From Arsenophonus endosymbiont of Aphis craccivora (GTDB taxonomy: Bacteria; Pseudomonadota; Gammaproteobacteria; Enterobacterales; Enterobacteriaceae), in assembly GCF_013460135.1 (NCBI RefSeq), contig NZ_CP038155.1, positions 310,001-374,000 on the forward strand: a stretch of DNA of 64,000 nt. Direction: 5' to 3'. The notes below the pieces were generated by a model. It searched no databases. It had not been told where the DNA came from and saw nothing but the letters and a program-made list of their open reading frames with translations. The position numbers were made by a program, and so were the translations under genes. Below, in pieces: positions 13,359 through 49,784 of this stretch; position 1 is the stretch's first letter; each line of letters starts with the position of its first letter.

Positions 13359-13832
13359 TTAATGCCATGGCATAATTGGCACAGCACTAATAGCATTTTT
13401 AGGCGATCCATCAATTATTTTGTCTGAATAAGTTAAATAAATAAGTGCATTCCGTTGTTTATCGTAGAAACGTACTACTTGTAGTTTTTTGAAAATCAAT
13501 GAAGTACGTTTTTGAAAAACAACTTGCCCCTTTTTATTATTTAATTTAATTTTGTCATCTATAATTATTGGCCCAACCTGTTGACAAGAAATTGCCGAAT
13601 CAGCAGTATCTTCTGCCAGGCCGAGACCTCCTTTAATACCGCCTGTTTTTGCTCGACTCAGATAACAAGTTATATTATTAATATCCGGATCGTCAAATGC
13701 TTCAATAACAATTTTATTATCAGGACCAAAAAGTTTAAATACCGTATCAACAGCACCGATTTCTTCTGCCAATATTGAATTTGGTAAAAAAAATATTATT
13801 AAAATAGATAGTAATTTTGACAAATTTAGCAT
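13359..13832 (-). CDS. creA: CreA family periplasmic protein
   Basis: CreA is a small conserved exported protein of unknown biochemical role, named from the E. coli creABCD locus. I chose the start at 13832 rather than 13856 because [24 protein letters not shown] is a good signal peptide with AGGA upstream. The mature part begins [28 protein letters not shown]. It continues through [21 protein letters not shown] and ends [15 protein letters not shown], as in E. coli. The gene is intact but isolated, since creBCD are absent from the window. Confidence 0.93.
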
Positions 13833-14825
13833 GATATCAATTTTCCTTAATAACACTCATTAAATAATAAAATTATTTTTACATTATTAATATCCATAAA
13901 AATAATAAAATAGCTATATAAAGCAATTTAGTATTAAATGGATGTTTATAATAAAGTCTTTATACTATTTATAGGTGATTATTTAAACCAGGTACTTCTA
14001 TGGATCAAAGCAATATTATCCGCGATTTACTGTATTGGATAGACACACATCTAGATCAGCCGCTATTTCTCGATAACGTCGCAGCTAAAGCTGGTTATTC
14101 AAAATGGCATTTACAGCGGATGTTTAAAAACATTACTCAGCAAGCTATTGGCTCTTATATCCGTGCTCGCCGGCTTTCCCGTGCGGCTGTTGCTCTTAGG
14201 CTGACTAGTCGGCCAATTCTTGATATTGCACTGCAATACCGTTTTGATTCACAGCAAACCTTTACTCGTGCGTTTAAAAAACAATTTGGCATTACACCAG
14301 CTCTCTATCGTCACAGTGAAGAGTGGTGTGCTACAGGTATGCAACCACCAATCACTCTAGAAGAACAAAAATTACCAAATGTGTCCTTTGTCACACTAGC
14401 ACCGAAACATTTAATGGAAATAGAACAAACTTGCTCATATATATTAGAAAAATGGTCTACTGCCTGTGCTGAAATGTGCCAACATTTCTGGCAATATTAT
14501 CAAGATAAAACAAAAATTATACCTAATGAAGTTTATGGATTATATCGTGTCGTGCATAGCTCAGAAAAGTATGATGAACAAACGGTTTCATATATCACTG
14601 CAGTCGAACCACAATATGCTGATAATGAAAATAATTTATACCATTCAGTTATCATCGAAGGCGGTGATTATGCCCTCTTTACTTTTGAAGGAAAACCAAC
14701 AAAAAGTGATCTACAACAGTTTTTATATATGATTTATGGTGTTTATATGCCTAATCTCAAGCTAACCCGTCGCGCGGGACACGATATAGAACATTATCAG
14801 CTGAAAGATCCTAATAATCCTGAAT

Positions 14826-31923: not shown

Positions 31924-34005
31924 TTAATTAACCGTTTGGCCAATAAAGGAGGTTAAACGAATTTTCCGTTCGTCACTGATCTCAAGACTGGAAACTACCG
32001 CAAGCTGGGGTAAACTTCGACGTAAAAAACGTGACATTAAAGGACGTAAGCTATGATTGACAATTAACACCTGTGGTGCACCAATTAAACTTTGATTATT
32101 GATAGCTTCAATCGCTTGTTGCTCAATATTACCCGCCAGCCCCGGCTCTAATCCACCGCCCGATTGTAGTGCTAGGATCAAAACTCGCTCAAGGCTAACA
32201 TCCAGACCAATGGCTTTGATCTCTAGTTTATCACCAAACCAATGCTGCGTGATCGCCCTGGCTAACGCAATACGAACCAAACTGGTCAGTTCCGTTACCT
32301 CTTTTTGATCTGCCGCATGCTCTGCTAAGGTTTCAATGATGGTGCGCATATCACGTATCGGCACCTGCTCACTTAATAAATTCTGTAATACTTTATGAAA
32401 CAGCGTTAAATTGATCACATCAGGCATCATGATCCTGCGTCAGTTTCGGTAACTCTTTACTGATCCGTTCATAAAGCTGCTGCGCTTCCTGACGACCAAA
32501 TCATTCACTAGCAAAGCGACTTAACAGATGATTAAAATGCGTCGCAATTACCGTACTAGCTGCAACCACCGTATAACCTTGCACTTGCGCCTGTTCACGT
32601 AATGCTTCATCGATCCAGATAGCCGGTAAACCAAAAGCAGGCTCTTGGGTCGCATCACCGATCAATTCCCCGATAGCACCACCTGGGTTAATTGCCAACC
32701 ACCGCCCTGGATAGGATTCCCCCCGACCAATTTCTACCCCTTTCATTAAAATACGATAGACTTCGGGCTTCAACGCCATATTATCGCGAATATGTAACAC
32801 CGGCGCTAAATAACCTATCTCTTTGGCAAATTTTTTGCGGATGCCGCCAATTCGATTAAGCAGCTCGCCATTTTGTCCCTGATCAACCAATGGGATCAAA
32901 CGGTAACCAACCTCCATACCCAATGGATCTTCAGGCTGAACATCATCCCAACTAACCTCTACCTCCTGGTAACTCTGTTCAATCTTTTGTTGTTGCTCAA
33001 CATCAATTACCGGTTTGGCCGAGCGTTTCATCAATTTCCAACCAATAAAACCTAATACCAAAGTAAAGAGCAAAAAAACAATATTTGGCATACCGGGGAC
33101 AAGCCCAAGCAAACCTAATACTCCCGCCGTTAACATCAATACCCTTGGGTTATCAAATAGTTGGCCCAACATCTGCTCGCCGACATCTTCATCAGTCTCA
33201 ACCCGGGTAACAATCACACCAGCAGCGGTAGAAATAATTAATGCCGGGATCTGTGCCACCAGGCCGTCACCAATGGTGAACAAGGTATAGATACTCGCTG
33301 ATTCACCCAACGTTAAACCATGTTGAGCGACACCAACCACTAACCCACCAATGATATTGATCGCCATAATCATCAGTCCGGCGATGGCATCACCACGCAC
33401 AAATTTACTAGCACCATCCATTGAACCATAAAAATCAGACTCTTGGTTAACTTCTTTCCGTCGCGCTTACGCTTCATCAACCAAGCCGGCATTCAGATTA
33501 GCATCAATCGCCATCTGCTTACCTGGCATACCATCTAACACTAAGCGGGCACCCACCTCTGCTATTCGACCAGCACCTTTGGTGATCACCATAAAGTTAA
33601 TCAGAATCAGAATAATAAAAACCACAATGCCAATCGCAAAATTACCACCCACCAGAACATGGCCAAAGGATTCAACAACCTTACCTGCTGCCGCCGATCC
33701 GGTATGTCCCTCTAATAAAATAACGCGGGTTGAAGCCACATTGAGTGATAGCCGTAATAAAGTGGAAAACAGCAAAATAGTTGGAAATGCCTCAAATTCA
33801 AGAGGGCGCTTGGTAAACATGGCCACTAATAACACCATAATCGAAAGGGCGATATTAAAAGTGAACAACATATCTAATAAAAAAGCGGCAATGGCAATAC
33901 CATCATCGACAAAATTAATAAGATTAATATTGGTCCGGCTAAAATTTGCCATTGAGTATCTTTTAAGTCTTTAGGTAAACGCAATCGTGAGGCTAAGTTA
34001 GCTAT
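31924..34005 (-). pseudogene. flhA: Flagellar export gate protein FlhA, multiple lesions
   Basis: FlhA is the large export-gate subunit. The expected first codon at 34005-34003 is ATA, followed by [25 protein letters not shown] 1-bp deletion near 33890 falls after MMVLPLP. TAA (33467-33469) follows [12 protein letters not shown] (32501-32503) replaces Leu in SELFGRQEAQ, and another frameshift lies near 32430. Between these the eight-helix channel part ([29 protein letters not shown]) and the cytosolic domain (GYRLIPLVDQG, KVLQNLLSEQVPIRDMRTI) are easily recognised. At least five lesions mean long-standing loss. Confidence 0.96.
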
Positions 34006-37489: not shown

Positions 37490-38298
37490 GAATCTTTAAC
37501 ATCAGAAGAATTGGTACCAATCGGATTTTTCATACTACGAACATGATTTTCTAATTCATAAAAAGAGGGCCTATCATCTAAAAACAGCGTTTTCCGACCA
37601 AATTCTACCGCAATTCGTGGGGCATAACCGTTAAGGAATGACAGTAAAGTGACTTTAATACATTCCATCATCTTAATTTGCTGATGGCTCTTTTGTCGCA
37701 CCAAATTTGCTAATGGTGAAATAAAACCATATGCCAGTAGAATTCCCAGGAAAGTTCCAACCATCGCATTAGCAATTAATATTCCCATCTCGCCAGCAGG
37801 CCTATCCGCAGAAGCAAGTGCATGCACCACCCCCATCCCCGCGGCAACTATACCAAAAGCAGGTAATGAATCACCTAACATACTTAAACTAACCGCAGGG
37901 ATTTCAGCTTCATGTTCAAAAGTGGCAATTTCTTCATCCATTAATGCTTCAACCTCATGGGCATTCATATTGCCAGTAACCATTAATCGCATATAGTCAG
38001 TTAAAAAGCTTATTAAATGCGGATCATTTAATAATTTAGGATATTGAAAAAAAATGTCACTCTGATGTGGATTTTCAATATCTCGCTCCAACGATAAAAT
38101 TCCTTCTTGGCGCGCTTTTGATAGTAATAGAAATTGTAGTGCCATTAGATCCATATAAATTATTTTATTATATCGCGAACTTGTTAGTAATTTTGGTAAT
38201 ACCTTCAATGTTGCTTTAATCGCTTTGCCATTATTTGCTACAATAAAACCACCTAATACTGCTCCAATAACCACAAGATAGCCTAAGAATATAAGCAC
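37486..38298 (-). CDS. motA: Flagellar motor stator protein MotA with internal deletion
   Basis: MotA is the four-helix stator subunit. The frame is open and recognisable (MLIFLGYLVVIGAVLGG..., GDSLPAFGIVAAGMGVVHALASADRPAGEMG, YGFISPLANLVRQKS), but it is 270 residues where the family has 295. The missing part is one block of 27 residues directly after VLGGF. It corresponds to the E. coli region with YLMTGG, LYQPAE and VIIAGAGIG. This removes the first periplasmic loop and most of transmembrane helix 2. The functional Arg/Glu loop and both prolines are kept. It is likely non-functional although the frame is intact. Confidence 0.9.
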   Translation of the reverse strand: MLIFLGYLVVIGAVLGGFIVANNGKAIKATLKVLPKLLTSSRYNKIIYMDLMALQFLLLSKARQEGILSLERDIENPHQSDIFFQYPKLLNDPHLISFLTDYMRLMVTGNMNAHEVEALMDEEIATFEHEAEIPAVSLSMLGDSLPAFGIVAAGMGVVHALASADRPAGEMGILIANAMVGTFLGILLAYGFISPLANLVRQKSHQQIKMMECIKVTLLSFLNGYAPRIAVEFGRKTLFLDDRPSFYELENHVRSMKNPIGTNSSDVKDS

Positions 38299-38422
38299 CT
38301 GATATTCCCTTTATTGATAATGATGAACTAGAGATCCGTATTCAAAGCTAACATACCGACCTATAAGAGAGCTATGGTAAACCTAAACCATCATTTTCTA
38401 TTTTATAAGCTCAGTTGCTACA

Positions 38423-38992
38423 CTACTGAATTTTCCCCAATACTTGCGCATGAATATCGGCAAATTGACAAGAATGTTTACGTTTTTTGATCGCCCTTGA
38501 AGGTGGTTGGCATAAACTACAAGCAAAAATGTTCACTGGTTGGTGTGCATGGGTAATAAAAGTTCCACCACAGCAGCGACAAGTTGATGGTTGCAACATG
38601 CCACTATCAACAAATCGAACTAGCGTCCATGCCCTTGTCAAAGCAAGTATATGTGGTTTGCTTGGTTCAGTGCCGCATTGTTCCAGATACAAACGATAAG
38701 CCCGTACGACAGCATTTATTCCCCTATAATGACCACTGGTTAATAAAAATCGATAAGCATTATAAAACATAGAAGAATGAATATTTTGTTCCCAAGTAAT
38801 AAACCAATCGGTTGATAATGGCAACATACCTTTAGGTGGTGGATTACCCAGTAATTCCTTATATAACTTAATTAATCGTCCTCGGCTGAGTTGAGTTTCA
38901 CTTTCCAACATTTGAAGACGTGCACCTAAATTAATTAAATCTATAGCCAAATGGATATCTTTTGCTTCTTGAACAATACTTTTACTCACCAT
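38423..38992 (-). CDS. flhC: Flagellar master regulator subunit FlhC
   Basis: FlhC with FlhD forms the hexameric FlhD4C2 activator of class 2 flagellar promoters. The 189 residues match E. coli (192). The zinc site cysteines are in CRCCGGTF and [12 protein letters not shown]. The segment [28 protein letters not shown]-like is near the N-terminus. It is intact, but flhD immediately upstream is truncated by IS-5, so both partner and promoter are lost. Confidence 0.95.
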
Positions 38993-38994
38993 AA

Positions 38995-39115
38995 TTATGC
39001 CCTTCTTTTTATCGATTTATCATTTTTCGATAATTGTTGGAACAAATGAGTTGATAATAAAATTCCGGTGTGAATTTGTTGTAGATCATCAACACGAGAT
39101 TCTTTAGTTAATTGT
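38995..39115 (-). pseudogene. flhD: FlhD C-terminal stump truncated by IS-5
   Basis: The sequence beside IS-5 reads [20 protein letters not shown], then [19 protein letters not shown] and stop. It matches the C-terminal third of FlhD ([21 protein letters not shown] in E. coli). About 39 of 116 codons remain. The promoter and N-terminal part lie beyond the IS junction. The flhD stop is 3 bp from the flhC ATG. Confidence 0.95.
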
Positions 39116-40170
39116 GGCTTTGTTGAATAAATCAGAATTAGCCGCCAGGATGGCTCCCTCTGCTACAGCTGTTATCCGATCCTGACGCTGTGTGGCATAC
39201 CCAACAACGTCATACGGTTCAGCGCTTTGACCATCGCCATTGCTTCACCTACCTGAGCCTCATAGTCACGCAGCCTCAGATGGCCACCCAGCAAAGTTTT
39301 TATGCGGAACATCGCTGTTTCTGCCACTGAACGCCGGTGATAACCCACTTTCTTTTTCCACATATCATTACTCCTGCTCAGACGCTGATTCGCCACCGCA
39401 TGGTTACGTTCATGGTACTTGTCCGGCCAGTATTTCGCTCCGCTTCGCGGCGGGATAAGGGGCCTGATTTTCTTTCTTAGCAACGCGTCGTGGCAGTAAC
39501 AGGCGTCATAAGCACCGTCTGCTAACACTTCCCTGATTTTCCGGTGGGTTTGGTTAATCAGGCCCGGCAGTGCCTGCGCATCTGTCGTTCCGCTGAGCGA
39601 TAAGTCGGCACAGATAATCTCATGAGTCACACTGTCTGCTGCCAGATGAAGCTTGCGCCACACTCTTCGTCTGTCAGCCCCATGCTGCCTGACTTTCCAT
39701 TCACCTTCGCCAAAGACCTTCAGACCGGTACTGTCGATGACCAGATGCGAGATTTCACCACGCGTTGGCGTTTTTATGCTGATGTTGACGCTCTTTGCTC
39801 GTCTGCTGACCAGCGAGTAGTCCGGACAGCACAGCGGCAAAGACATGAGTTTAAAAATCGAATCAACGAAGCCCTGTAATGCCCGGAGCGACAGGTTAAA
39901 CACACGCTTCATCATCAGGACAGTGGTAACAGCCATATCGCTGTAGTAAAGCGGCCGGCCACGACCTTCAGGCGAAGAATTGTCAGTCCATCCAGCGATG
40001 GCCGACTCATCAAGCCAGACCGTCAGGGAACCGCGTTGTCTGAGTGCCTTGTTGTACGCGGGCCAGTTGGTAATTTTAAACTTTTGCTTTGCCATGGGGA
40101 CCTGATGTTGAAACGAATTTAGCGATCAGCTCCGCCAATCACCTAAAAGTTCGATTTATTCAACAAAGCA
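39116..40170 (-). mobile_element. IS-5: IS903-type element at a rearrangement junction, one end altered
   Basis: The left end is perfect. At the right end the outermost base is A instead of C (ATTCAACAAAGCA). Flanks GTTAATTGT and ACGATAAAT do not match, so no target duplication. The left neighbour is flhD (cut) and the right neighbour an unrelated ORF (also cut). Confidence 0.94.
39172..40095 (-). CDS. IS903-type transposase, full length (IS-5)
   Basis: A 307-residue open frame with D121, D193 and E259. It carries S39N and S191L, shared with IS-3 (S191L also with IS-7). The protein looks active, but mutation of the terminal base at one IS end may impair mobilisation of this copy. Confidence 0.94.
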   Translation of the reverse strand: MAKQKFKITNWPAYNKALRQRGSLTVWLDESAIAGWTDNSSPEGRGRPLYYSDMAVTTVLMMKRVFNLSLRALQGFVDSIFKLMSLPLCCPDYSLVSRRAKSVNISIKTPTRGEISHLVIDSTGLKVFGEGEWKVRQHGADRRRVWRKLHLAADSVTHEIICADLSLSGTTDAQALPGLINQTHRKIREVLADGAYDACYCHDALLRKKIRPLIPPRSGAKYWPDKYHERNHAVANQRLSRSNDMWKKKVGYHRRSVAETAMFRIKTLLGGHLRLRDYEAQVGEAMAMVKALNRMTLLGMPHSVRIG

Positions 40171-40645
40171 ACGATAAATATAAATAGGCTAATGTATCAA
40201 GAATTGTGATGAAATCATTTTTACCAGCATATTTATCTAATTGATGTATATTATATTGTTCAGCAGATTTACTGTCATATATATCAAAAAATTCCATATT
40301 ACAATCGTTCATATACAAACTTTGAATAAGATGTTTATATAATCTGGCATCAGATACAGCATTAAGATTCTGCAATTCTTTAGCAATTATTCCTGGTACA
40401 ATATTAGCGTTAACCTCTTTATCTTCGTAATAATAAATATTACTATTATCTATTCTTTTTTTTATTTCTGAGCACAATAAAGTAATAGATGATTTTACTC
40501 CTTCTTGCTTGCTATGCTCATCTGCAAAAAAAAATTCAACCGATTGATTACAAACACCCTTTAGCTTATCGATGATAGCATGATTAATATTACTCTTGAC
40601 TTTTCTATAACATTGACTAATAGAATTAATATTAGCTATACGCAT
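40171..40645 (-). pseudogene. Unrecognised ORF, 3'-truncated by IS-5
   Basis: The ATG at 40645 opens 158 codons (MRIANINSISQCYRKVKSNI...) that run into IS-5, where four more residues and a stop are read. The product is hydrophilic, rich in Asn, Ile and Tyr, without signal peptide or membrane segment. Recognisable stretches are NHAIIDKLKGVCNQSVEFFF, SNIYYYEDKEVNANIVPGII and MEFFDIYDSKSAEQYNIHQL. Its composition is even more AT-rich than its neighbours, suggesting accessory origin. I cannot assign a family. The original C-terminus is elsewhere or lost. Confidence 0.6.
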
Positions 40646-40822
40646 AATTTGTTATTTCAACCATCTCAAAAACAACAAATATCAATAATTTCATTATTAA
40701 TTAATATAACAAAACCACCTAAAATAAAAAGAATCTACTAAACCAAATAGTGAACAAATCTCAGATTAAATAATAAAATGGCTGCTGATTAATCGGTGGA
40801 TCAATCAGCAATCGTTAGCGTG

Positions 40823-42310
40823 TTATTGGCTGGCTTTATATTCAGCTTCCGCTTTAATAAAGCGTTTCACGGCGCTCTGGCTAGGTGCGGTAGTTAACAG
40901 GCTAACGACAACAATGGCGATTGAGGCAAAAATAAAACCGGGAATAATTTCATACAAACCAAACCACTTATATTGCATCCATATCAATACCGTTAAAGCA
41001 CCGACCAACATACCGGCTAAAGCACCATAGCGATTCATACGTTGCCACAAGACAGAAATCAAGATCACTGGACCAAAGGCCGCGCCAAAGCCTGCCCAGG
41101 CGTTGCTAACTAAAACCAATACTTTATTATTGGGATCAAGAGCAATAAAAATAGCCATTGCCGCCACCACTAACACCATGGCACGACCAACCCAAACTAA
41201 CTCTCGCTGGCGAGCTTTAGGTCTGATAAACGGTTTATAGAGATCTTCAGTCAACGCACTGGCACAAACCAATAATTGACAACTCAAGGTACTCATCACA
41301 GCAGCTAAAATGGCTGATAACAATATCCCGGCCAGCCAAGGATTAAATAAAATAATGGCTAATTCCATAAATACCCGCTCAGGATTAGCCATAACCGCAC
41401 CGGCAACGGCAGGATGCAGATCAAAATAAGCAATGGCAAAAAAACCAACCGCAATCGTGCCTGCTAAACAGAGTACCATCCAGGTCATACTAATACGCCG
41501 TGCCCGCTTAATGGTTTGCGCTGATTCAGCTGCCATAAAACGTGCTAATATATGCGGTTGGCCAAAGTAGCCTAAGCCCCATCCCAATAAAGAGATAATG
41601 GCAATAAAATTTAATCCTTTAAACATATCTAGATATGCGGGATCTTTATTGTTAATAAATGTTACCGCGCTGTCCAAGCTACCGACAGCAAAGATCACCA
41701 TGATTGGTGTTAATAATAAGGCAAAAATCATCAAAGTAGCTTGTACCGTATCCGTCCAGCTAACGGCTAGAAAACCGCCCAAAAAAGTATAAATAATGGT
41801 GGCTAATGCACCTAGCCACATCGCTTGCTGATAGCTTATGCCAAAAGTATTTTCAAACAGTAATCCGCCGGCCACCACACCGGAAGCACAATAGATAGTA
41901 AAAAAAACCAAGATCACCAAGGCCGAAACAATACGCAACATTTTACTTTTATCTTCAAAGCGGCTGGTAAAATAGTCAGGTAATGTAAGCGAATTATGAT
42001 TATTTTCGGTTTGCACGCGTAATCGCCCAGCGACTAATCGCCAATTTAAATAAGCGCCTAAAGATAATCCGATCGCAATCCAGCTTTCCGCTATTCCGCT
42101 TAGAAAAATAGCGCCCGGTAATCCCATTAATAACCAACCACTCATATCTGATGCACCAGCAGAAAGCGCCGTTACTACCCCACCTAAACGACGTCCGCCT
42201 AAAATGTAATCATCAAAACTGGTTGTTGAACGATAGGCCCAAAAACCGATTAACAACATCACAAAAATATAAATCACAAACATAATTATCATTGGGTAGC
42301 TTAATGTCAT
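40823..42310 (-). CDS. putP: Sodium/proline symporter PutP
   Basis: PutP imports proline with Na+ across the inner membrane (SSS family). The 495 residues match the family (E. coli 502). It has about 13 hydrophobic segments. The sodium/solute motif region is ILGGRRLGGVVTALSAGASDMSGWLLMGLPGAIFLSGIAESWIA, and GWGLGYFGQPHILARFMAAES is the SSS signature. It is divergent from putA across the put control region. It is intact. Confidence 0.97.
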   Translation of the reverse strand: MTLSYPMIIMFVIYIFVMLLIGFWAYRSTTSFDDYILGGRRLGGVVTALSAGASDMSGWLLMGLPGAIFLSGIAESWIAIGLSLGAYLNWRLVAGRLRVQTENNHNSLTLPDYFTSRFEDKSKMLRIVSALVILVFFTIYCASGVVAGGLLFENTFGISYQQAMWLGALATIIYTFLGGFLAVSWTDTVQATLMIFALLLTPIMVIFAVGSLDSAVTFINNKDPAYLDMFKGLNFIAIISLLGWGLGYFGQPHILARFMAAESAQTIKRARRISMTWMVLCLAGTIAVGFFAIAYFDLHPAVAGAVMANPERVFMELAIILFNPWLAGILLSAILAAVMSTLSCQLLVCASALTEDLYKPFIRPKARQRELVWVGRAMVLVVAAMAIFIALDPNNKVLVLVSNAWAGFGAAFGPVILISVLWQRMNRYGALAGMLVGALTVLIWMQYKWFGLYEIIPGFIFASIAIVVVSLLTTAPSQSAVKRFIKAEAEYKASQ

Positions 42311-42780
42311 CTGTCCCTCTCCATCGTTTTTCTCTTTTTGAGTTTTGTTAGTATGCAGGCATGCAAGTTATAATTTTGAATTAACGAAAATTAGACTTAT
42401 TTTTAACGCATAAACTGACTTTTTATTTTCCTATTCTTCTTGAAATTTTATTTTGATGAAAATATAATCAACTCAATAAATAAACCATAAAATAACAAAA
42501 ATTTAATAGTTATTGGGCCAATAATCAGAAAACTAGCCACAAATGTTAATTTGTTTGGTGATATATTTAGTTAAATAATTATAAAATTAATTAATTTAAT
42601 ATTCTTTTATTTATTTATGTTTCAGCAAGATATAACAATACTTATAATAAAATCTATTTTAATTAATACAAAAATAGATTTATTTCACATTTCTCACACT
42701 TTCATTAGTTAACAATATTGCACCAAATTAAAACATAAAGGATATTGTTAAATTACCGACTTCTAACAATCAGCAAAAGA
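42311..42780. promoter_or_regulatory. putP-putA intergenic control region
   Basis: About 470 bp of very AT-rich DNA between divergent putP and the putA remnant. In E. coli this region holds PutA operators and CRP/IHF sites. I cannot pick out individual operators by eye, and I see no ORF. Confidence 0.4.
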
Positions 42781-42804
42781 ATAAGAATTAGTCGCCGCAT
42801 AACT

Positions 42805-42938
42805 GCAGTCATTCTTTCTGTTGATAAAGTAACCAGATAAGGTATTGAAACAACTTTACAAAGCCTGGAGCTTAGATCGATTAGTTAACAGGACAGGCAA
42901 TATTTAATTATCTTAGACACTTTGATAATGAGGAAACT
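42805..42938 (+). pseudogene. Decayed ribbon-helix-helix domain of PutA
   Basis: Directly upstream of the putA ATG, and in the same frame, QAIFNYLRHFDNEET (42894-42938) matches the end of the E. coli RHH domain (QAIFSYLEQLENSDT). TAG at 42882-42884 falls where a Trp codon (HWLIKQ) is expected. Further upstream, in a different frame, VDKVTR-stop-GIETTLQSLELR (TAA 42838-42840) resembles LDDATRERIKSAATRID. The DNA-binding domain was therefore present and has been destroyed by at least two stops and a frameshift. Confidence 0.8.
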
Positions 42939-45900
42939 ATGGTTCAATTCCCGGCTACCAAAGTTAATGAAAAAGAAAATTCATCTAGTGACATCGCAAT
43001 ATGCCCTAAAACAGGAAAGCCCTCCTTTTTAAATTTTGCACAGCATATTTTACCTCAATCCGCAAAACGCTCAGCAATCACTGCAGCCTATCGATTACCT
43101 GAAACACAGCTATTACCTCTATTAGTGCAACAGGCACAGCTACCAGAAACTGAGACACAAGCGGCTTATCAACTAGCCTATCAGCTAGCAAAAAATCTAC
43201 GTCAGCAAAAAAAGAGTGTTGGCCGTTCTGGTTTAGTCCAGAGTCTATTACAACAATTTTCTCTCTCGTCGCAAGAAGGGATTGCGCTTATGTGCCTGGC
43301 TGAAGCACTGCTGCGCATCCCCGATAACGCTACCCGTGACATATTGATCCGCGACAAAATTAGTGGTGGTGACTGGAAGTCACATATTGGACAGAGTTCA
43401 TCATTATTTGTTAATGCCACCACCTGGGGTTTGCTAATTACGGGCAAATTAGTTGCCAGCCATCATGAAACTAAACTTACCAGTGCTCTTAACCGGATCA
43501 TTAGTAAAAGTGGTGAACCCATTATTCGTCAAGCTGTGAATATGGCAATGCGGCTAATGGGTGAGCAATTTGTCACTGGTGAAACCATCACAAAAGCACT
43601 AAGTAATGCGCATAAAATGGAAAATGAAGGTTTTAGCTACTCGTATGATATGTTAGGTGAAGCAGCCTTAACCGATGAAGATGCCAAAAGCTACATGGCT
43701 GCTTATCAACAAGCGATTGATGCTATTGGTAAAGCTTCCGACGGCAAAAGCATTTATGCCAGTGCCGGAATTTCCATTAAACTATCTGCCCTCCATGCAA
43801 GATATTGCCGGGCTCAATATGAGCGGGTGGTGTCTGAGCTTTACCCTCGTCTGTTCACATTAACCTTACAAGCACGTCATTACAATATTGGCATTAATAT
43901 TGATGCTGAAGAAGCCGATAGATTGGAAATTTCCCTAGATCTGTTAGAAAAGCTGTGCTTCGAACCGCAACTAGCCGGCTGGGATGGAATTGGCTTTGTC
44001 ATTCAGGCATATCAAAAACGCTGCCCCTATGTTATCGATGAAATTATCGATTTAGCGCAACGCAGTCAACACCGTTTGATGATCCGACTGGTAAAAGGCG
44101 CTTATTGGGATAGTGAAATTAAACGCGCGCAAATAGATGGTCTTGAAGGTTACCCGGTCTATAGCAGAAAAATTTATACTGATGTCAGTTATCTGGCTTG
44201 TGCGCGTAAATTGCTGTCGGTGCCCAATTTGATTTACCCCCAATTTGCCACCCATAACGCCCATACCTTAGCCACGATTTATTATATGGCTGGTGAAAAT
44301 TATTATCCTGGCCAATATGAATTTCAATGTTTACATGGCATGGGAGAAGAGCTATATCAACAAGTTGTCGGCGCCATCGCCGAAGGTAAACTTCATCGTC
44401 CCTGTCGTATTTATGCGCCAGTCGGTAGTCATCAAACCTTGTTGGCTTACCTGGTGCGCCGCTTACTGGAAAATGGCGCAAATACGTCATTCGTTAATCA
44501 GATTGCCGATCCTAATATTCCATTAGATAAACTGGTAGCCGATCCAGTGCAACAAGTGCTGGTGGCGGCTGAAACGGCAGGCCAACTGGGTTTGCCACAT
44601 CCACAAATCCCACTGCCTCGTGCGCTATATGGCAGCAAGCGCCTCAATGCTATTGGTATTGATTTGACCAACGAACATCACCTGGCGGCACTGGCGCAGA
44701 CTCTACTGACCACCCCTCTCTGTTATCAGGTTAAACCTTTACTGGCAGGAGAACCGCCCTCGCCGGCTGAAATTTCAGCCCGACAGCCGATCACTAATCC
44801 GGCTAATTTTGACGATATCGTCGGCTATGTCCATGAAGCAAGTCTAACCGAAGTCGAGCATGCGTTGGAAATTGCTACCGACGCAGCTACTCGCTGGGCG
44901 ACGATTCCCGTCATACAACGAGCGGCCATTTTGCAACAAGCGGCTAGCCTGATGGAGCAGCAATTCTCCCGTTTAATTGGCGTATTGATCCGTGAAGCCG
45001 GCAAAACCTTTAGTAATGCCATTGCTGAAGTGCGCGAAGCGATCGATTTTTTGCGTTACTACGCCGTACAGATCAGTGAAAATTTCAATAATGAAAGCTA
45101 TTCGCCACTGGGTGTGGTGGTTTGCATTAGTCCGTGGAATTTCCCACTGGCGATTTTTAGCGGCCAAATCGCTGCCGCTTTAGCGAGCGGTAATAGCGTA
45201 TTGGCCAAACCGGCAGAGCAAACACCGATTATTGCCATGCTAGCGGTTGAGTTACTGCACCAGGCGGGCATTCCCCGCGATGTTCTCCAGCTGCTGCCCG
45301 GTAGCGGCGAGCGAGTGGGTAGCAAACTGATCAGTGACAAGCGGACGAACGGTGTGATGTTTACCGGTTCAACCCAGGTGGCCAAACTGATCCAGCATAA
45401 TCTTGCCGGCCGACTCAATGCTCAGCAACAGCCCATTCCACTGATTGCCGAAACCGGCGGCTTAAATGCCATGATTGTTGATTCATCCGCACTGACGGAG
45501 CAAGTTGTCAATGACGTTATCATTTCAGCCTTCGATAGTGCCGGTCAACGCTGCTCTGCCCTACGTATTCTTTGTATCCAGGAAGAGGTCGCTGAACGCA
45601 CACTGACGATGTTAAAAGGCGCGATAGACGAATACCGAATCGGTGATCCTAGCCAGCTGGCAACCGATATTGGCCCGGTCATTGATAGCGAAGCACAGCA
45701 TAATATCGAACAGCACATTGCCCAGATGCGTCAAGCAGGGAAAACCCTGTATCAGGCTGAGCAAACTAGCCAACAGCATGATAATCAATGGCAACAAGGC
45801 ACCTTTGTCCGACCCACCTTAATTGAAATTGACCATTTTAATGAACTGAAAAATGAAATTTTTGGCCCGGTACTACATATTTTACGCTTTAAGCGCCATC

Positions 45901-48554: not shown

Positions 48555-49784
48555 TTAACGCAGTAAAGAAAGCACTGACTGGTTAGACTGATTAGCCATT
48601 GCCAATACTGTGGTGCCAGCTTGTTGCAAGATTTGGGCATTACTTAAGTTAGACACTTCTTCGGCAAAATCGGCATCCAAAATACGGCTACGGGCAGCAG
48701 ATAGGTTGTTAACTGTATTGGTTAAATTCTCAACCGCTGATTCCAGCCGGCTCTGTATGGCACCCCATTGGCTACGTTTAGCAGAGACATCATCCAAGGC
48801 TTTATCAAGTTTTGCAAAAACTTGATCCGGTGTTACCGAACCTGCACCTTGACCTGTACCTTGGCCACCTGGTAAGGCCGTACCTACAGTACCGGCATGG
48901 CTAGTGTTGATTTTAGTACCAACTGTGATACCCACTTCTTTATCAGCACCACTAGCATCAGCTGCTAAAGTCACCTCGTAAACGTCGCCTGCAGTCGTTT
49001 TCAATACATATTGATCCGCAACCGAAGCACCCGCATTATCCAGCTTTTGATGCAACTCATACCCTGAGCTTAATGCATTACCTACCTGTAAGACCAGAAG
49101 CACCAGAATTAGTTATTGTAACCTTAGCTGCATCCAAGACACCTGTGGCAGTATTTCCGGTGAAAGTTAGATCGGCATCAAGTCCAGCTGCTGTTGCTGC
49201 AGTTGAGTTATACTGCACTGTCGCTGCCGTTCCCGATGACGCAGTTGCTGCGAATACATTTAAATCAATATCTTTAATATCTAGAGTAGCGATAGTGGTT
49301 GCCGTTACATTTACCCCAATTTGTTCACCATGGTTGGCACCCGTTTGCAGCATTATCGTGCCATTGGTATCTAATGTTTTATTGCCGTTAAATTCGGCTT
49401 GGTTAATAATACGGCCAATTTCCTCTATACGCTGTGCTACTTCAGCTTGCAGCGTCGCAATATCTTTGTTTGAGTTAGTACCGTTACTGGCCTGCACCGC
49501 TAAATTACGGATCGCCTGCAAGTTATCATTCACCTGTGACAACGACCCTTCGGCGGTTTGTGCTAACGAGATACCATCATTGGCGTTACGCGTCGCCTGT
49601 TTCATACCCATAATGTTAGAGGTCATGCCATTGGCAATTGACATGCCGGCCGCATCGTCTTTGGCACTGTTAATGCGCAGGCCAGTAGATAGAAGTTGGA
49701 TAGTGGGCCCAAGTTATTTTGGGTTTTATTTCATGCTTTTTGCGCATTTAACGCAAACATATTGGTATTGATAACCAGAGCCAT
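48555..49784 (-). pseudogene. fliC: Flagellin FliC, nonsense and frameshifts
   Basis: Flagellin is the filament subunit. The start MALVINTNMFALNAQKA at 49784 is followed by TGA at codon 18. The frame is then lost near 49700, and [18 protein letters not shown] appears in the next register. After it come [39 protein letters not shown] and the variable D2/D3 part. Another frameshift lies near 49085, within LTGR. The C-terminal D0/D1 is readable (LESAVENLTNTVNNLSAARSRILDADFAEEVSNLSNAQILQQAG...SLLR). Conserved ends with dead frames show loss of the filament. Confidence 0.96.

What the first reader, a model, noticed from the sequence alone, without database searches (positions are those of the whole stretch)
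40171..40645. Unrecognised AT-rich ORF truncated by IS-5
158 open codons without family resemblance, no signal peptide, hydrophilic with mixed helical segments, sitting alone at a rearrangement breakpoint. Length, composition and isolation are typical of accessory proteins such as effectors or toxin-like genes in insect symbionts, but no motif supports a specific function.
Basis: inference. Interest (0 to 1): 0.5.

Follow-up and report, generated by a model that had tools for sequence, protein, structure and literature searches.

The report
Remnant of an unknown gene
A jumping-DNA element has cut off the end of a gene with no detectable relatives in an insect-symbiont-like genome, leaving what is probably a dead leftover; it is an ordinary sign of genome decay.

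Summary
The ORF is real: it starts at 40645 on the minus strand, runs 158 codons to an IS5-family element and stops 3 codons inside the IS tip. None of 5000 shuffles gave so long an open run or such 3-base periodicity. No credible relative was found in Pfam, NCBIfam, PHROGs, PADLOC, PDB sequences, plasmids, phages, two scans each of viral contigs and genome contigs, or four overlapping genome samples. The single-sequence AlphaFold model is unusable (mean pLDDT 36.9).

The surroundings are a rearrangement scar. This IS copy has no target-site duplication, whereas 24 of the 54 copies I examined do. flhD codons 1-72 gave no match in the genome. Homology with two relatives ends at 40723-40726, just past putP. 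No reciprocal IS junction was found by exact pattern.

Best reading: the 5' part of a lineage-restricted accessory gene, stranded by IS-associated rearrangement and probably a pseudogene. The effector/toxin idea has no positive support; the only export-gate (FHIPEP) matches over cut-off are two pieces of a broken gene in the flagellar cluster.

The parts
40172..40645 (-). 158 codons of the orphan ORF outside the IS; ATG at 40645
40160..40171 (-). last three codons and stop of the open frame, read in or at the tip of the IS
39116..40169. IS5-family element, 1054 bases as matched, no target-site duplication; the base after its right tip is A where 46 of the 48 copies have C
39172..40095 (-). IS5-family transposase, 307 aa, intact frame
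38998..39115 (-). 3' remnant of flhD, cut off by the IS; codons 1-72 gave no match in the genome
   Evidence: match G000:C1:348998-349126, residues 73-115; family of the intact G005 copy
38423..38992 (-). flhC, intact frame
40646..40722 (.). AT-rich leader between the ORF and the end of homology with relatives; no promoter evidence above shuffles (5 found in 40100-41000, 6.0 expected)
40723..40726 (.). end of DNA homology with G001 (40723) and G005 (40726): non-IS junction of the orphan segment
40782..40811 (-). terminator-like hairpin after putP, separating putP from the ORF
40823..42310 (-). putP-like sodium:solute symporter (Pfam SSF)

Best explanation
A real but lineage-restricted protein-coding gene of unknown family once lay downstream of putP. 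Rearrangement involving the genome's many near-identical IS5-family copies brought an IS end into it; its 3' end is lost or untraceable, and what remains is 158 codons plus three codons and a stop read from the IS tip. The fragment is most likely a pseudogene in a decaying genome. Shown: an open, coding-like frame; truncation at an IS end; no target duplication; loss of flhD's 5' part; loss of synteny on the putP side; no reciprocal IS junction by exact pattern. Inferred: that the gene was longer, that it was acquired horizontally, and that it is now inactive.
For: Length and periodicity beyond 5000 shuffles each. The IS copy lacks a target duplication while 21 of 48 copies in fetched loci and 3 of 7 in the window (one copy is in both sets, so 24 of 54 together) keep a perfect one, so this copy's two flanks do not come from one simple insertion. 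flhD residues 1-72 gave no match in the genome at E up to 10. The amino-acid permease that follows putP in G005 (Pfam) gives only two matches of 51 and 54 bases in this genome. modA lies about 60 kb away beside another IS copy. No exact match for the expected reciprocal junction. No second copy of the ORF. Neighbouring genes are broken too: flhA.
Against: The frame is still intact over all 158 codons, which would suit a gene that is recently broken or still used; the original length is unknown, so the loss could be small. Relative to G005 a one-step deletion does not give this order: there putP lies about 55 kb to the left of flhC on the same strand, here to the right, so several events are needed. 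Not every IS copy was seen: one search scored 40 of 297 first-look candidates and did not list six further window copies found. One search scored 40 of 62 candidates, and allowed no mismatch.
Confidence: 0.75

Rival explanations
1. The truncated gene encoded a host-directed accessory protein (secreted effector or toxin-like).
For: AT-rich, restricted to this lineage among the genomes searched, at a mobile-element boundary. Such cargo is reported for Arsenophonus nasoniae plasmids and prophages (PMC7157526, passages seen), and related strains keep a type III system (PMC12090721, section 9).
Against: No family or motif match. FHIPEP gives over-cut-off matches only for two pieces of a broken gene in the flagellar cluster, so no type III export gate was found here. 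AT-richness is shared by an ordinary gene, CreA, at 31% GC.
Confidence: 0.12
2. The ORF is a piece of prophage or other mobile-element cargo, unrelated to host interaction.
For: Weak PHROGs match to a tail family (phrog_6305, E 0.003, residues 50-129). Part of the AT-rich DNA beside another recombinant IS copy looks phage-like to me (L067; not tested).
Against: The PHROGs match is weak and the second one is to an unrelated family (esterase/lipase, E 0.02). tblastn against 50,697 phage records found nothing at E up to 1; two viral-contig scans found no relative.
Confidence: 0.2
3. A still functional short protein of 161 aa that uses the IS-supplied stop.
For: No stop or frameshift in 158 codons.
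Against: The end is set by the IS tip; flanking genes are broken; no promoter signal above shuffles.
Confidence: 0.08
4. A chance open frame in AT-rich intergenic DNA.
For: Orphan status; the codon-usage score was exceeded by the best of 2000 shuffles.
Against: 0 of 5000 shuffles reach 158 codons and 0 of 5000 reach the periodicity.
Confidence: 0.03

Closest known systems
IS-truncated accessory pseudogenes of facultative insect symbionts (general knowledge; Arsenophonus strains with 15.7-17.8% pseudogenization in PMC12090721, section 5)
   Same: AT-rich lineage-specific ORF cut by an abundant IS in a genome with broken flagellar genes
ISEcl3-like IS5-family elements (IS903-like terminal repeats: recalled)
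   Same: Full-length match at 85.8-85.9% to plasmid copies annotated ISEcl3; best hit 87.4%, annotated IS5 family
   Different: It is only the element that truncates the ORF, not the ORF itself

Membership tests
IS5-family insertion (the truncating element) | IS5-family DDE transposase | tested here: met
   NF033579 337.6 bits, cut-off 140; Pfam DDE_Tnp_1_5
IS5-family insertion (the truncating element) | 9-base target duplication around this copy, as expected of a simple insertion | tested here: not met
   7 of 9 bases differ; 24 of 54 copies examined have a perfect one
Type III secreted effector | recognisable effector family or domain | tested here: not met
   no match over cut-off in Pfam, none in NCBIfam
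Type III secreted effector | a type III injection apparatus in the genome | tested here: not met
   FHIPEP only: two over-cut-off pieces of a gene with internal stops in the flagellar cluster; the third match is below cut-off and overlaps GrpE in frame. Other apparatus genes were not tested
Toxin-antitoxin or defence gene | match to a known defence family or a paired small gene | tested here: inconclusive
   no PADLOC match; the 3' side, where a partner could lie, is missing
Phage protein (PHROGs 6305, tail) | significant profile match over most of the protein | tested here: inconclusive
   E 0.003 over 80 of 158 residues; no phage relative by tblastn
DUF3615 (Pfam) | score over the curated cut-off | tested here: not met
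   13.5 bits against 24.8

The most novel reading that the evidence does not exclude
The fragment is the only surviving piece seen here of an undescribed protein family that served this symbiont lineage at the host interface, and intact members exist in unsampled sister strains.
Probability: 0.1. Interest if true: 0.4.

Novelty: new member of a known kind. Interest (0 to 1): 0.12.

Why it matters
It illustrates how dense, near-identical IS copies dismantle accessory and motility genes and leave coding fragments that annotation pipelines may list as hypothetical proteins. If an intact family member were found, it could be placed and tested; as it stands it is ordinary decay.

Tried and rejected
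Weak matches examined and rejected. G250 (L061, E 0.00143 for one genome among 394) lies in a topoisomerase gene (Pfam). G374 (L062, E 0.00404) covers residues 8-126 at 22% identity in an ORF without a Pfam match; I judge it chance but cannot exclude it. G527 (L068, E 0.0097 among 392) lies in an NAD-dependent epimerase gene. G003 (L003, E 0.08) is a same-genus 40-residue match with four stops between annotated-looking genes; 11 of 27 residues agree in its core. A decayed relative there cannot be excluded, but nothing around it aligns. DUF3615 is below cut-off. The only plasmid DNA match is a 30-base piece in a Rossellomorea record, judged chance. One held locus (L059, E 0.025) was not followed.

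The AlphaFold model (one sequence, mean pLDDT 36.9) was too poor to search, so no fold search was run. No Rfam family matched in 38000-43000. The paper search on IS recombination gave a listing only and was not used as evidence. In one search the codon table was trained on 14 gene entries, one of them (CreA) entered twice by mistake, and it includes flhC and CreA, so their own scores are not independent.

Full report
Observation. The minus-strand frame starting at 40645 is open for 158 codons up to the IS and closes three codons later at 40160, inside the IS terminal repeat. In 5000 dinucleotide shuffles of 40170-40822 the longest open run was 128 codons. Codon-position GC is 37/25/18%, and the periodicity statistic is 40.2 against a shuffle maximum of 25.0 in 5000. 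The codon-usage score (0.141; shuffles -0.020, sd 0.048) points the same way but the best of 2000 shuffles reached 0.168. The frame is therefore very probably a real coding sequence.

Relatives. Nothing credible was found. Pfam gave one match under cut-off and NCBIfam and PADLOC none. PHROGs gave three weak matches, the best at E 0.003 to a tail family. PDB sequences gave none at E up to 10. tblastn against 72,556 plasmids and 50,697 phages gave none at E up to 1. Two scans each of genome contigs and viral contigs, which detect close relatives only, gave none. Whole-genome searches, in overlapping samples and counting the window's own genome as a match each time: 2 of 39 relatives at E<=1; 3 of 394 in the order, 2 of 392 in the family and 1 of 398 in the phylum at E<=0.01. 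That leaves four non-self matches. Two fall inside a topoisomerase and an epimerase. One is in an ORF of no Pfam family (L062). One is a short same-genus match with stops (L003). I take all four as chance, the last two with less certainty. The tools warn that records very near the window's genome may be left out, so same-species homologues cannot be excluded.

Surroundings. The IS at 39116-40169 is an IS5-family element, 85.8-85.9% identical to plasmid copies annotated ISEcl3, the best plasmid match being 87.4%. Forty-eight copies with both ends were read in fetched loci and seven in the window, 54 in all without the shared one. Twenty-four have a perfect 9-base target duplication; 30, including this one, do not. 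More copies may exist, since one search scored 40 of 297 candidates. On the left side the IS cuts flhD: only residues 73-115 were found in the genome. On the right side DNA homology with two relatives ends at 40726 (G005) and 40723 (G001). In G005 the next gene is an amino-acid permease, then modA; G001 appears to have the same order by eye, not aligned. In the window's genome the permease is reduced to two matches of 51 and 54 bases elsewhere, probably paralogues, and modA sits about 60 kb away, next to another IS copy. In G005 putP lies about 55 kb to the left of flhC on the same strand; here it is to the right. One deletion cannot give that order, so several rearrangements are implied. An exact search for the reciprocal junction of this IS copy found none.

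Mechanism. The simplest account is that an accessory gene lay beside putP in this lineage and that IS-associated recombination or deletion removed its 3' end together with the 5' part of flhD. The fragment now ends at a stop supplied by the IS. Loss of function is inferred from truncation and from decay around it: the FHIPEP gene in the flagellar cluster is in two pieces with internal stops.

Effector hypothesis. No positive evidence was found. FHIPEP, the export gate shared by flagella and type III systems, gave two over-cut-off matches, both in the flagellar cluster. The third match, below cut-off, overlaps GrpE. One family is not a full test of secretion systems. Reports that Arsenophonus strains carry type III systems and many hypothetical genes on mobile elements (PMC12090721: abstract and sections 5 and 9 read; PMC7157526: passages seen) keep the idea open for the ancestor. 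The genus name of this genome is recalled from gene content; no call names it.

Verdict.

Noticed in passing
window 31969-33895 (-): FHIPEP gene in the flagellar cluster (flhA-like) is in two pieces with internal stops.
   Followed up: partly
window 38998-39115 (-): flhD is truncated by the IS while flhC beside it has an intact frame; in G005 it is flhC that has a stop and flhD that is whole.
   Followed up: partly
window 48555-49644 (-): Two adjacent flagellin-like ORFs look like one gene broken by a frameshift (identity by eye).
   Followed up: no
window 39116-40169 and L009: These two of 48 IS copies have a base other than C after the right tip (A and T), and neither has a target duplication.
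   Followed up: no
L067 5016-7564: Recombinant IS copy beside modA with DNA on its far side that resembles phage tail-fibre genes by eye.
   Followed up: no
window 13359-13856 (-): CreA gene at 31% GC, an AT-rich ordinary gene that shows low GC alone is weak evidence of foreign origin.
   Followed up: yes
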